From contig AP025179.1 in NCBI GenBank assembly GCA_021654635.1, forward strand, positions 6,282,451 to 6,346,450: a stretch of 64,000 nt of DNA. The letters run 5' to 3'. Shown in pieces: positions 1,329 through 58,981 of this stretch. The stretch is from Mycobacterium kiyosense. GTDB taxonomy: Bacteria; Actinomycetota; Actinomycetes; Mycobacteriales; Mycobacteriaceae. Positions within the stretch are counted from its first letter, which is position 1. The number at the start of each line of letters is the position of its first letter. The notes beneath the pieces were generated by a model. It saw nothing but the letters and a program-made list of their open reading frames with translations. It did no database searches and was not told the DNA's origin. Both the position numbers and the translations under genes were made by a program.

Positions 1329-2858
1329 ATGAACGAGCCCCAGGAATTCCTGCGTAATCGAGTGCGGGCCGATCAACCGGCGACCCCGCATCCGCCGGTT
1401 CCACGGCGGGAGGCCGCGCGACCGGTCCCGGCACCGGGTTTTCGCCGCCACCCACTCCGGTCCGGCCTGCGCAGCCGGCGCCCCGCCCGGCCCCACCGCC
1501 GCCGGCCCCACCGCCGCCGAGCGGGGACGCGCCACCGCCGCCACCACCCCAACCGAGGCAACGTCAGCCTCAACGGACGAGACTAAAACACCTCCCGCGC
1601 CACCGCGCGTGGACCAGCCACCCCGCCCGGCGCCACCGCACCAGCAGGAACCCCGGCCCCGCAGTTCGTGCCGCCACCGGCACCGGAGGCACCGAAACCG
1701 CCCGCCGCACCGCACTCCGAGCCGGCCCCGAGGCCCCCACTTCCGCCTGCGTCGTCGCACCCGATGCCGGCTCCGCCGTTGGCACCGCCGCACGGCGGCG
1801 CGCCGGCACCCGCGCCACAGCACCGCCCGCCGGCCCCGCCCTACCGTCCGGCGGCCGCGCCGCCGCCGTCGCCGAGCCTGCCGGCGTCCTCGTCGGCGCC
1901 CCCGCGGCCGAGTTCATGGCAGGGCACCGGCGCGGGCCCGGTGCGCACCGCATCCCAGCCGACCGAGCGCGGCTGGCGGCGCATGGTGCGGGTGGCCACG
2001 TTCGGGCTCGTCACGCCCGGCCCGTCCGCCGCGCAACGGGACATCGCGCAGTTCGAAGCGGCAATCCGCACCGCCCTGCACGGCAATCACAAAGTCGGCG
2101 TCCTGGGCAAAGGCGGCGTCGGGAAGACGTCGGTGGCCGCCAGCGTCGGCTCGATCCTTGCCGAGCTGCGCCAGCAGGATCGCGTCGTCGCCATCGACGC
2201 CGACACCGCTTTCGGCCGGCTGAGCAGCCGCATCGACCCCCGCACCACCGGCTCGTTCTGGGAACTCACCGCGGACAAGAACCTGCAGTCGTTCGCGGAC
2301 ATGACCGCTCGGGTGGGCCGCAACGCGGCCGGTCTCTACGTCTTGGGCGGTGAGCCGGTTTCGGGTCCGCGCCGGGTGCTCGATCCGGCGGTCTACCGGG
2401 AAGCCGCCCTGCGCCTGGATCGCCACTTCGCGATCTCGGTGATCGACTGCGGATCCACGATGGATGCGGCGGTCACGCAGGAAGTGCTGCGCGACCTCGA
2501 CGCATTGATCGTGGTGTCCTCGCCGTGGGCGGACGGGGCCGCCGCCGCGGCCAAGACCGTGGAATGGCTGGCGGATCACGACCTGCGCCACCTGCTGCAC
2601 CGCAGCGTGGTGGTGCTCAACGACTCCGACGGCCACGCCGACAAGCGCACCCGGTCGTTGCTGGCACGCGAGTTCGTCGATCACGGCCAGCCGGTGGTGG
2701 AGGTGCCCTTCGATCCCCACCTGCGGCCCGGCGGCGTCATCGACGTCACCAACGAGATGGCGCCGGCGACGCGACTGAAATTTCTGCAAGTCGCCGCCAC
2801 CATCACCGGCTACTTCGCCTCGCGGGCCGACGCCGGGCGGGAACGACCCGGCGCCTGA
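1329..2858 (+). CDS. MinD/ParA-like ATPase of the ESX-1 flank (Rv3860-like), frameshifted in the Pro-rich part
   Basis: The protein starts MNEPQEFLRNRVRADQ, runs through a long Pro/Ala-rich stretch and ends in a P-loop ATPase domain with KGGVGKTS (about nt 2108-2131) and a DADTAFGR switch-like motif. A GWRR motif stands about 45 residues before the P-loop, as in EspI and the Rv3888c-like protein of this window. The Pro-rich part is readable only by changing frame three times (near 1440, 1550 and 1650), each like one lost base; net phase is restored, so the ATPase domain returns to the starting frame. A reading from GTG at 1668 would give an intact 396-codon protein. The position matches Rv3860. 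The role is unknown; by homology it is a cytosolic MinD-type ATPase that may work with ESX-1. ATG 1329 is chosen because MNEPQEF follows directly upstream in frame. Confidence 0.75.
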
Positions 2859-2983
2859 CCACGCGAAGCTGACGAATCGAGCAGCCGCCGACGGCGCGAG
2901 AAGACATCCAATCTCTCACGCCGCCAACGTATTTCGCAGTTTCCGTTACCCCGGCCGCTGGACGCCGCCCGGCGGGCACCGGG

Positions 2984-3274
2984 TCATGCCGATTGGGCGG
3001 TCACCCGCTCACGAACCGCGAGCCCGTTGCGCTCGGCCAGCGAACGCAGCTGGTTGAGCGCGAAGGTCCGGGCACGGCCCGAGTCGGGGATCACCACACC
3101 GGCCCACAGGCCTTCGGCGCCGGGTAGTTCCACCGCTTCCTTGGCGCACAGCCAACGGCGGGGGCACGCCCGGCACAGCGTCTTGGCCTCCGCGTCGGGA
3201 GTCGTCGTCCAACGGTCGGGGTCTTGGGTGCACACGCCGAGCTGCGGGACCTCATACAGAGTCGTAGCAGTCAT
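2984..3274 (-). CDS. whiB6: WhiB-family iron-sulfur transcription factor WhiB6
   Basis: 96 residues with the four WhiB cysteines C15, C34, C37 and C43 (C-x2-C-x5-C in LCRACPRRWLC) that bind a 4Fe-4S cluster, and GLWAGVVIP, the turn that precedes the basic DNA-binding tail. WhiB6 regulates ESX-1 genes in mycobacteria in response to redox state and ESX-1 status. ATG 3274 is chosen because GGAGGA lies 10 bases upstream; a TTG at 3292 is in frame but falls on that ribosome site. It is divergent from espM, as in M. tuberculosis. A palindrome overlaps its likely -35 box (see 3338-3358). Confidence 0.93.
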   Translation of the reverse strand: MTATTLYEVPQLGVCTQDPDRWTTTPDAEAKTLCRACPRRWLCAKEAVELPGAEGLWAGVVIPDSGRARTFALNQLRSLAERNGLAVRERVTAQSA

Positions 3275-56790: not shown

Positions 56791-57556
56791 CGCACTCCTG
56801 CGGCGCGCGTAGCACGTTGCCCGTCGCACTCCCCGCCGATGCCGCGCCGACCGGTTGCTCGAGCTGAGCGTTTTCCAGCAGCCGCTCCAGCGCCGCCTCG
56901 ACTTCGGCCTTCCAGCCCAGCCCCTTGTCCAGCTCCAGCCGCAGCCGCGGGAAGTACGGGTGCGGTGCCACCACCACGAATCCGACGTCGATCAGGAAGT
57001 CCGCGTCGATGATGCAGTTCTCGACGGAGCAGTCGTTGAGCGCTTCGAGCACCGGCCGGATGTCCTCGTCGATCGGCTCGCGCAGCTCAGTGGCCGCCTC
57101 GGTTCTACCGAAGGCCTCGAGGGCACGCACACCACGACGCACCAGTTCGTCGATGACCCCGGTGATCAGCTGGTCCGGGAGGTCACCCATGACGTCGGCG
57201 TGGGCCTGGCCACGCTCGATGCCCATCGACGTCAGCAGCACCGCGTCGGCCGATACCGGCGCGGTGGGAAATCGGTGCGCGCGGGGCACCGCTCGCGGCG
57301 GGGCGTAGAGGACGTAGCCGACCACCGGCGGTTCGGCTTGGCTGCGCTCGTCGGGGATCGCGGTAGCGACCTGCCCGCACGAACCCCACTCCAGCATCAC
57401 CATGGACAGCCACGCTTCTTTTTCGAATTCGGGGTCGGCCAAGTGGTCGTCTTTGCCCAGGGTCGCCGGATCGACTTCCCAGAAGACGCAGCGGCGCGCA
57501 TGCTTGGGGAGTTGCTCGAAGGCTTCGAGCCGCAGCGCTGAAATCCGAGCTGACAC
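56774..57556 (-). CDS. Conserved protein of unknown function (Rv3916c-like)
   Basis: 260 residues from GTG 57556 (VSARISALRLEAFEQLPKHA), the start best matching the M. tuberculosis protein. Conserved blocks are RRCVFWEVDP, SMVMLEWGSCGQVA, IIDADFLIDVGFVVVAPHPY and FPRLRLELD. A GNAT-like acyltransferase fold is plausible (alpha/beta with a C-terminal VVAPHPYFPRLRLEL strand-loop), but no clear acetyl-CoA loop is seen. It stays next to parB in actinobacteria, which suggests an oriC-proximal role. Confidence 0.8.
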   Translation of the reverse strand: MSARISALRLEAFEQLPKHARRCVFWEVDPATLGKDDHLADPEFEKEAWLSMVMLEWGSCGQVATAIPDERSQAEPPVVGYVLYAPPRAVPRAHRFPTAPVSADAVLLTSMGIERGQAHADVMGDLPDQLITGVIDELVRRGVRALEAFGRTEAATELREPIDEDIRPVLEALNDCSVENCIIDADFLIDVGFVVVAPHPYFPRLRLELDKGLGWKAEVEAALERLLENAQLEQPVGAASAGSATGNVLRAPQECENPSD

Positions 57557-57987
57557 TAGTCTCCTGGCCTCCGTGCGATGCTCAAGACCCTCAAACCCAT
57601 AAGCCCCACTCCTGTGCGGGCCGGTCCGGCTCGCGTCGTCGCAAGGCCCGCGGTCCGCGGCGTCTCGCGCTGTTGCACTGCGATCCCCCGGCGACCACTT
57701 GCTCCGGGCTGTACACCGGAGGTGCGCCGGCAACCCTTCCAGGATAGGGAGTCGGTGCGGATCGGGCCAGTGGTGGCCCGCCCACCACGCAGGGCATGGC
57801 GAGTGAGCCGCCCACCACAGCCGGGCACCGCCGGGATCGCCGTGCGGCAAGGCCGGCGATTCCCGAAATAGGTTGCTGCATAACGGATCTGCTGTAGGTG
57901 CGGTCGCCTGACAGGGGCAGTCCCACGGCGCGACGTCGGCTTGGTGTCACAGTGACGTAATTACACGATGTGGTGGGTCGTGCCAGT
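57557..57987. other. Intergenic region parB / Rv3916c-like
   Basis: 431 bases downstream of parB and upstream of the Rv3916c-like gene (both minus). No convincing gene. GTCAC-A-GTGAC at 57946-57956 is the only clear inverted repeat; parts around 57870-57900 (CATAACGGATCTGC) are AT-richer and may hold a promoter. Confidence 0.5.
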
Positions 57988-58981
57988 TCAGCCTTGCTTC
58001 GCGGTCATCAGGTCGATGATCCGCTGCAGATCGTCGACGGAGCCGAACTCGACGACGATCTTGCCCTTCCGTTTGCCGAGTGCGACCGTGACCCGGGTGT
58101 CGAAGGCGTTCGACAGCCGCTCAGCAACGTCCTGCAGTCCTGGCATCTGAATCGGTTTGCGACGCGGCTGGGTCGGCGTGGCACCGTCACCGCGGTTGGC
58201 CAGCGTGACCGCCTCTTCGGTGGCACGCACCGAAAGACCTTCCGCCACGATCCGGCTCGCGAGTTCCTCCTGCGCGTCCGGCCCCGACTCCAGCGACAGC
58301 AAGGCGCGAGCATGCCCCGCGGACAGCACCCCCGCGGCGACCCGCCGCTGCACCGGGATCGGCAACTTGAGCAACCGGATCATGTTGGTGATCAACGGTC
58401 GCGACCGGCCGATGCGGGCGGCCAGTTCGTCGTGGGTGACACCGAACTCGTCCAACAATTGCTGATAGGCCGCCGCCTCTTCCAACGGGTTCAGCTGCAC
58501 CCGGTGAATGTTTTCCAGCAATGCGTCGCGCAACAGGTTGTCGTCACCGGTCTCGCGCACGATGGCGGGCAGGGTGGCCAGGCCGGCAGCTTGCGCCGCC
58601 CGCCACCGCCGCTCCCCCCATCACGATCTGGTAATGCGCGCCGCTCGCCGAAGCCGGCACCGCGCGCACCACGATCGGCTGCAACAAGCCGAACTCGCGG
58701 ATCGAGTGCACCAGTTCGGAGAGGGCTTCGTCGTCGAACACCTGCCGGGGCTGCCGCGGGTTGGGCTCGATGTCCGACGGCGCGATCTCGCGGTACACCG
58801 CGCCCATCGCGGTGGCGTCGGGCAGCGGCCCGCCGATCACCACGTCGGCGGCCGCGGACCCCATCCGCGGCCCGAAGCTCGACGGTCCCGAATCACCTTC
58901 AGCTGGGCCGGTCGGAATCAACGACGCCAAGCCGCGGGGCCGAGGCCGCCTTTCCTGCGCGACGGGTTCGTCATTCGTCAT
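57988..58981 (-). CDS. parB: Chromosome partitioning protein ParB (one frameshift)
   Basis: ATG 58981 overlaps the parA stop and gives MTNDEPVAQERRPRPRGLAS. Box I of the CTPase domain (PNPRQPR) and box II begin in this frame; at YQIVMGERRWRAAQ the frame breaks because a run of six G (C at 58614-58619 on plus) should be five. The other frame holds ENIHRVQLNPLEEA (box III), the parS-binding HTH and the C-terminal dimer domain (VVEFGSVDDLQRIIDLM). Corrected length is about 330. ParB loads on parS, spreads as a CTP-dependent clamp and works with ParA. Two parS sites lie close by. Confidence 0.93.

What the first reader, a model, noticed from the sequence alone, without database searches (positions are those of the whole stretch)
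1329..58981. About 21 single-base frame changes in 11 genes, several in essential genes, mostly in G/C-rich runs
Genes whose protein is readable only across frame breaks: Rv3860-like (3), eccCa1, eccCb1, espI (3), eccD1 (2), espK, kinase copy 1, mycP2 (5), mutT4, murJ (2), parB. About 16 are losses and 5 gains. Clear cases are murJ at 49130-49133 (four G for five), eccD1 at 20248-20251 and parB at 58614-58619 (six C on plus for five). murJ and an intact parB would not be expected to be lost together, and coding similarity continues beyond every break, so assembly error is the simplest reading. It matters because automatic annotation would call ESX-1 core genes pseudogenes.
Basis: partly seen in the sequence, partly recalled or inferred. 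Interest (0 to 1): 0.7.

Follow-up and report, generated by a model that had tools for sequence, protein, structure and literature searches.

The report
Assembly errors mimicking broken mycobacterial genes
The reading-frame breaks are in the sequence, but they occur beyond this stretch too, often in runs of G or C, and also hit genes a bacterium is not expected to live without, so they most likely come from sequencing or assembly mistakes rather than from biology.

Summary
Of 21 claimed frame changes, 13 are confirmed by DNA alignment: each relative that could be judged (4 or 5) agrees. One more (kinase copy 1) is confirmed by its domains lying in two frames. Six (Rv3860-like, espI) fit per-frame pieces but lie in low-complexity sequence and are unresolved. 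The one in mutT4 was not found. A second change in parB was missed.

The assembly-error reading is supported. Over 264 kb around the window this genome has 26 lineage-specific coding frame changes in 144 kb; five relatives have 1-11 in 135-165 kb each, about six-fold fewer. Changes also hit single-copy murF and dnaB. Of 79 (murJ) and 59 (parB) testable related loci, none shares the break. Constraint beside the breaks is normal, and 18 of 23 resolved events touch runs of four or more.

Against it: four mid-genome regions show 3 changes in 43 kb, no significant excess, though G/C-run length changes are in excess there. Losses do not dominate outside the window. Individual real pseudogenes are not excluded.

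The parts
1320..2858 (+). Rv3860-like gene; frame interrupted in a low-complexity zone about 1430-1950, number of changes unresolved
   Evidence: pieces before and after lie in one frame with a stop between; pieces in the other two frames in the zone
11128..13529 (+). eccCa1; one frame change near the 5' end (about 11.24-11.37 kb)
   Evidence: 5 of 6 relatives; 5 of 5
13526..15284 (+). eccCb1; one frame change near the 5' end (about 13.55-13.60 kb)
   Evidence: 5 of 6; 5 of 5
17464..19578 (+). espI; open in one frame, but a stretch inside about 17.6-18.5 kb matches relatives in other frames
   Evidence: low complexity, unresolved
19557..21108 (+). eccD1; two frame changes between about 20.06 and 20.26 kb
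   Evidence: 6 of 6; 5 of 5
22016..24282 (-). espK; one net frame change inside a low-complexity linker (about 22.8-23.7 kb)
   Evidence: halves in two frames; 3 of 3; 5 of 5
30540..32314 (+). PknH-like kinase copy 1; kinase domain and PknH_C domain in different frames (change between about 31.3 and 31.75 kb)
32362..34011 (+). PknH-like kinase copy 2, from the start of its kinase domain; both domains in one frame
37388..39050 (-). mycP2 (mycosin); five frame changes in two groups, about 37.5-37.65 kb and 38.3-38.5 kb
   Evidence: 5 of 5 or 4 of 4 at each; family
45759..46520 (+). mutT4 (NUDIX); no frame change found
   Evidence: 67 of 67 hit loci in one frame, 16 reaching the first 15 residues
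49050..52563 (+). murJ; two frame changes, near the 5' end (about 49.1 kb) and near the 3' end (about 52.35 kb)
   Evidence: 5 of 5 each; 4 of 4 and 5 of 5; tail in frame in 79 of 79 testable related loci; one search did not resolve the 5' one
57994..58977 (-). parB; two frame changes, about 58.6 kb and about 58.9 kb (the second not in the finding)
   Evidence: 5 of 5 each; first junction in frame in 59 of 59 testable related loci

Best explanation
Most of the frame breaks are consensus errors of the assembly: miscounted bases, mainly in short G/C runs, left in a one-contig genome that was not corrected with accurate reads. Shown: a lineage-specific excess of frame-breaking indels over 264 kb, association with G/C runs, normal constraint on both sides of the breaks, hits in murF and dnaB, and no sharing of two junctions by tested relatives. 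Inferred: that the excess is technical rather than a real mutation burst, how the genome was sequenced, and which individual sites are errors.
For: Rate: 26 coding frame changes in 144 kb against 22 in 768 kb for five relatives under the same test; 6.3-fold, binomial p 1e-9. Protein-level versions point the same way, less strongly: 10 strong window sites against 1-4, 12 against 2-8 in a looser count. Size: lineage-specific indels in and within 50 bases of coding-like DNA are 68 frame-breaking to 25 in-frame here, 124 to 110 in the relatives (p 0.0006). Run context: 18 of 23 resolved events touch a run of four or more (background 8.2%), 21 of 23 in G or C. G/C runs whose length the relatives agree on are lengthened in 10 of 4,518 against 1 of 23,280 (p 1e-7), and in the mid-genome sample in 4 of 1,322 against 1 of 5,313 (p 0.007). 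Essential genes: murF in three adjacent pieces, no place over the family cut-off; dnaB interrupted at residue 235 of the G006 ORF, before its inserts. MurC-F are called essential in M. tuberculosis (PMC6736417, passage), as is DnaB (PMC5694481, passages). Mismatch share at one codon position beside the breaks is 0.692, elsewhere 0.697. Homopolymer indels that cause frameshifts are described for long-read-only assemblies (PMC8812927, passages).
Against: Four mid-genome regions gave 3 changes in 42.6 kb, no significant excess by themselves (p 0.20); rpoB plus S10 gave 0 in 24.2 kb (p 0.013 at the origin-region rate), which would also fit selection against real breaks. Sites are clumped (variance/mean 2.8; 8 in one 24-kb block). 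Gains outnumber losses (36 to 22; 18 to 5), whereas deletions after runs are stressed for nanopore data (PMC12007338, passages). Shortening of G/C runs is only slightly above the relatives (origin 16 of 4,518 against 57 of 23,280; mid-genome 6 of 1,322 against 13 of 5,313). Runs were measured in this genome, where a gain lengthens the run, so that enrichment is inflated. A first crude two-way count was nearly even (30 against 24). A strict conserved-run test showed no excess; few runs qualified. M. asiaticum G033 also has a raised count (11 in 152 kb). No copy search was made for dnaB. No reads were available.
Confidence: 0.92

Rival explanations
1. Real, recent decay: the strain is losing genes, including the ESX loci, through slippage in G/C runs, for example after loss of a replication-fidelity function.
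For: Breaks clump; rpoB and S10 regions have none in 24 kb; many hit genes are ESX, lipid-enzyme or kinase genes, which I take as dispensable from memory.
Against: murF, with no copy over the cut-off elsewhere, and dnaB are broken too. Constraint is undiminished beside the breaks. G/C-run lengthening is as frequent in the mid-genome sample (4 of 1,322) as near the origin (10 of 4,518).
Confidence: 0.04
2. Mixture, compatible with the best explanation: most sites are errors, but a few genes (for example mycP2 of ESX-2, with five changes) are true pseudogenes.
For: mycP2 has five changes within about 1 kb; relatives also show a few lineage-specific frame changes each.
Against: A similarly dense cluster runs from a PBP1A-like gene to dnaB, so clustering does not mark dispensable genes.
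Confidence: 0.2
3. Programmed or tolerated frameshifting: the changes are real and the ribosome or RNA polymerase slips at G/C runs to restore the products.
For: Normal constraint beyond the breaks and run context would also be expected.
Against: No tested relative shares the 3' murJ or the first parB junction (0 of 79 and 0 of 59 testable loci); the sites lie at unrelated places in many genes; several changes in one gene would be costly (inference).
Confidence: 0.015

Closest known systems
Homopolymer-length errors in long-read-only bacterial assemblies (PMC8812927: abstract start in a listing and passages seen; PMC12007338: abstract start in a listing and passages seen)
   Same: One-contig genome, small indels in short homopolymers, frame breaks across many genes, apparent pseudogenes
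   Different: Here one-base gains outnumber losses over 264 kb (36 to 22), whereas deletions after homopolymers are stressed in PMC12007338; the platform is not known
Reductive genome decay of the Mycobacterium leprae kind (recalled, not searched)
   Same: Many frame-broken genes in a Mycobacterium
   Different: Here breaks include murF and dnaB and show no relaxed constraint
Phase-variable homopolymer tracts (recalled)
   Same: Run-length change switches a frame
   Different: Runs here are mostly of 4-6 bases (17 of 23) and scattered over unrelated genes

Membership tests
Long-read consensus error | Frame breaks spread beyond one locus, at a rate above that of relatives | tested here: met
   for 264 kb around the origin
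Long-read consensus error | Excess also in distant parts of the genome | tested here: inconclusive
   frame changes 3 in 42.6 kb, not significant; changes in G/C runs of four or more in excess, 6 of 138 against 3 of 571
Long-read consensus error | Concentration in homopolymer runs | tested here: met
   the strict version showed no excess
Long-read consensus error | Indiscriminate as to gene function, essential genes included | tested here: met
   murF, dnaB; essentiality for M. tuberculosis from passages; but none in rpoB and S10 regions
Long-read consensus error | Raw or accurate reads disagree with the consensus | not testable with these tools
   no reads held
Genuine pseudogenes | Relaxed constraint in the broken gene | tested here: not met
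   share 0.692 beside the sites (n=52), 0.697 elsewhere (n=276); very recent breaks would not show it
Genuine pseudogenes | Restricted to dispensable genes | tested here: not met
   murF and dnaB
Programmed frameshift site | Site conserved among relatives | tested here: not met
   0 of 79 (murJ, 3' site) and 0 of 59 (parB, first site) testable loci; other sites judged against five relatives only

The most novel reading that the evidence does not exclude
The indels are real and the strain is a living mycobacterium with a genome-wide burst of G/C-run slippage, whose essential proteins (MurF, DnaB, MurJ, ParB) are made by frequent slippage in transcription or translation.
Probability: 0.015. Interest if true: 0.85.

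Novelty: not a real feature. Interest (0 to 1): 0.1.

Why it matters
Automatic annotation of this genome would probably call ESX-1 and ESX-2 core genes, murF, dnaB, murJ and parB pseudogenes or fragments, although the breaks are most likely errors. Gene-presence, secretion-locus and pseudogene comparisons that use this assembly would be misled. The held completeness score (98.5%) does not reveal it.

Tried and rejected
A first two-way tblastn chain count gave nearly equal numbers in both directions (30 and 24). It counts ORF extensions that overlap neighbouring genes, so it was replaced by tests that need agreement among relatives and then by DNA frame-offset tracks with codon phase. A panel run over all ORFs hit the time limit and was redone faster.

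A strict test of runs identical in all relatives showed no excess (this genome, origin region 1,199 same, 0 longer, 2 shorter; mid-genome 505 same, 1 longer, 1 shorter). Only a small part of runs qualified; the relaxed version is.

Samples at 1.6, 3.2 and 4.8 Mb gave no good collinear set of relatives and were replaced by regions around rpoB, S10, recA and ftsZ. The five samples L133-L137 entered no count; L123-L127 (100-200 kb) entered only.

Considered and rejected: a local effect of the ESX-1 region (excess lies on both sides); a general excess of gaps in this genome (in-frame indels 25, within the relatives' 6-42); a break in mutT4 (not found).
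Full report
What was given. The finding lists about 21 single-base frame changes in 11 genes between 1,329 and 58,981 and reads them as assembly error. The window is bases 6,282,451-6,346,450, the end of a single 6.35-Mb contig, 98.5% complete by the held score. Gene names such as eccD1, espI and mycP2 come from the finding and from recalled gene order; family searches here cover murJ, parB, mycosin, recF, dnaB and murF through relatives' ORFs, and the kinases and mutT4.

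Is it there? Frame offset of this genome against five relatives was followed along the DNA. One search listed 31 window sites with 45-base flanks; 14, in genes of the finding, were judged, and at each every relative that could be judged (4 or 5) showed the same change: eccCa1 1, eccCb1 1, eccD1 2, espK 1, mycP2 5, murJ 2, parB 2. Thirteen are in the finding; the second parB site is new. Of the 17 sites left out, 12 had only two relatives (4 of them phase-consistent) and 5 had three or more without phase agreement. Protein pieces searched frame by frame agree for eccCa1 and eccCb1 (5 of 6 relatives each) and eccD1 (6 of 6); they did not resolve the 5' site of murJ. Kinase copy 1 carries its kinase domain and its PknH_C domain in different frames, while the adjacent second copy has both in one frame. 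Rv3860-like and espI show pieces in other frames within low-complexity stretches; espI's long frame nevertheless stays open, so it would be annotated whole. mutT4 is open and matches 67 of 67 hit loci in a single frame, though only 16 matches reach its first 15 residues.

Is it more than relatives show? The same test with each genome as target gave, over the origin region: this genome 26 changes in 144,454 coding-like bases; G006 2 in 164,958; G031 3 in 164,466; G033 11 in 151,573; G036 5 in 152,420; G041 1 in 135,027. The ratio to the pooled relatives is 6.3. The changes are not confined to the window: 7 in the 100 kb before, 7 in the window, 12 in the 100 kb after. This strict test finds 7 of the 14 window sites; the others appear with shorter flanks, fewer relatives or without its coding filter. 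By size, lineage-specific indels here are 58 of one base, 8 of two, 2 of other frame-breaking lengths and 25 in frame; the relatives have 6-28 of one base and 6-42 in frame. That count includes 50 bases beside coding-like DNA, so some are intergenic.

Elsewhere in the genome. In four 20-kb regions around rpoB, S10, recA and ftsZ this genome has 3 changes in 42,561 bases, the relatives 0, 1, 3 and 1 in 40-44 kb each; not a significant excess, and rpoB plus S10 have none. G/C runs of four or more, however, differ in length from what the relatives agree on in 6 of 138 here against 3 of 571 (p 0.0025), and in the origin region in 11 of 590 against 14 of 2,938 (p 0.0012). Lengthening carries the excess; shortening is only slightly above the relatives. 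I read this as errors being present there too, with few regions sampled.

Which genes? Taking the longest G006 ORF at each site and its family, changes outside the window fall in a flotillin-like gene, an acyl-CoA-dehydrogenase-like gene (two), Culp6, a carotenoid-oxidoreductase-like gene, recF (two), an EccC-type gene (two), a PBP1A-like gene (three), dnaB, and five ORFs without a family hit (six changes); in the mid-genome regions in murF (two) and miaA. The murF profile meets this genome in three adjacent pieces in succession (positions 1-118, 115-186, 185-418) and no place reaches the family cut-off, so no intact second copy was found. In dnaB the change falls at residue 235 of the 1,029-residue G006 ORF, before the inserts that split the helicase match; a second dnaB copy was not searched for. 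MurF and DnaB are called essential in M. tuberculosis in passages that I read (PMC6736417; PMC5694481); for this species that is inference.

Where do the changes lie? Of 26 sites, 23 could be resolved to one event, 18 gains and 5 losses; 18 of 23 touch a run of four or more (8.2% of random places do) and 21 of 23 are in G or C. Runs were measured in this genome, where a gain lengthens the run, so the enrichment is overstated, which takes the relatives' run length, is free of that. In the window 11 of 14 have such a run within 8 bases (background 17%).

Do relatives share them? Pieces on either side of the 3' murJ site and of the first parB site were placed separately on 80 related loci: in frame with each other in 79 of 79 and 59 of 59 that held both pieces (1 and 21 lacked one or both), never in different frames.

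Selection. Mismatches against relatives fall on one codon position in 69.2% beside the sites and 69.7% elsewhere: the genes were under normal constraint until very recently, or still are.

Conclusion. The frame breaks are in the sequence, but as a set they behave like consensus errors. The gain bias does not match the deletion emphasis that I read for nanopore assemblies (PMC12007338, passages), so I do not name a platform. Extrapolating 1.8 per 10 kb would give roughly a thousand breaks in the genome; this is inference, and the mid-genome sample suggests fewer. Some individual breaks, mycP2 for instance, may still be real.

Noticed in passing
G000 contig positions about 69.5-75.6 kb (L121): Eight frame changes in 6 kb, from a PBP1A-like gene to dnaB: the densest cluster seen, possibly a stretch of poor read support.
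   Followed up: partly
window 30540-34011: Two PknH-like kinase genes in tandem, one frame-broken and one intact; no G006 ORF covered this stretch.
   Followed up: partly
G033 and G036 recA; G000, G006 and G031 recA: recA is split by a long insert (intein-like spacing) in M. asiaticum G033 and M. simulans G036 but not in this genome, G006 or G031.
   Followed up: no
G033 (M. asiaticum DSM 44297) over the origin region: This draft also shows more lineage-specific frame changes (11 in 152 kb) than the other four relatives.
   Followed up: no
window 17464-19578: espI stays open in one frame although an inner stretch matches relatives in other frames, so frame errors can also hide without a stop.
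   Followed up: partly
window about 6.35, 17.35, 17.41, 40.5 and 43.1 kb: Five further offset changes against three or more relatives that lack codon-phase agreement, several near gene junctions.
   Followed up: no
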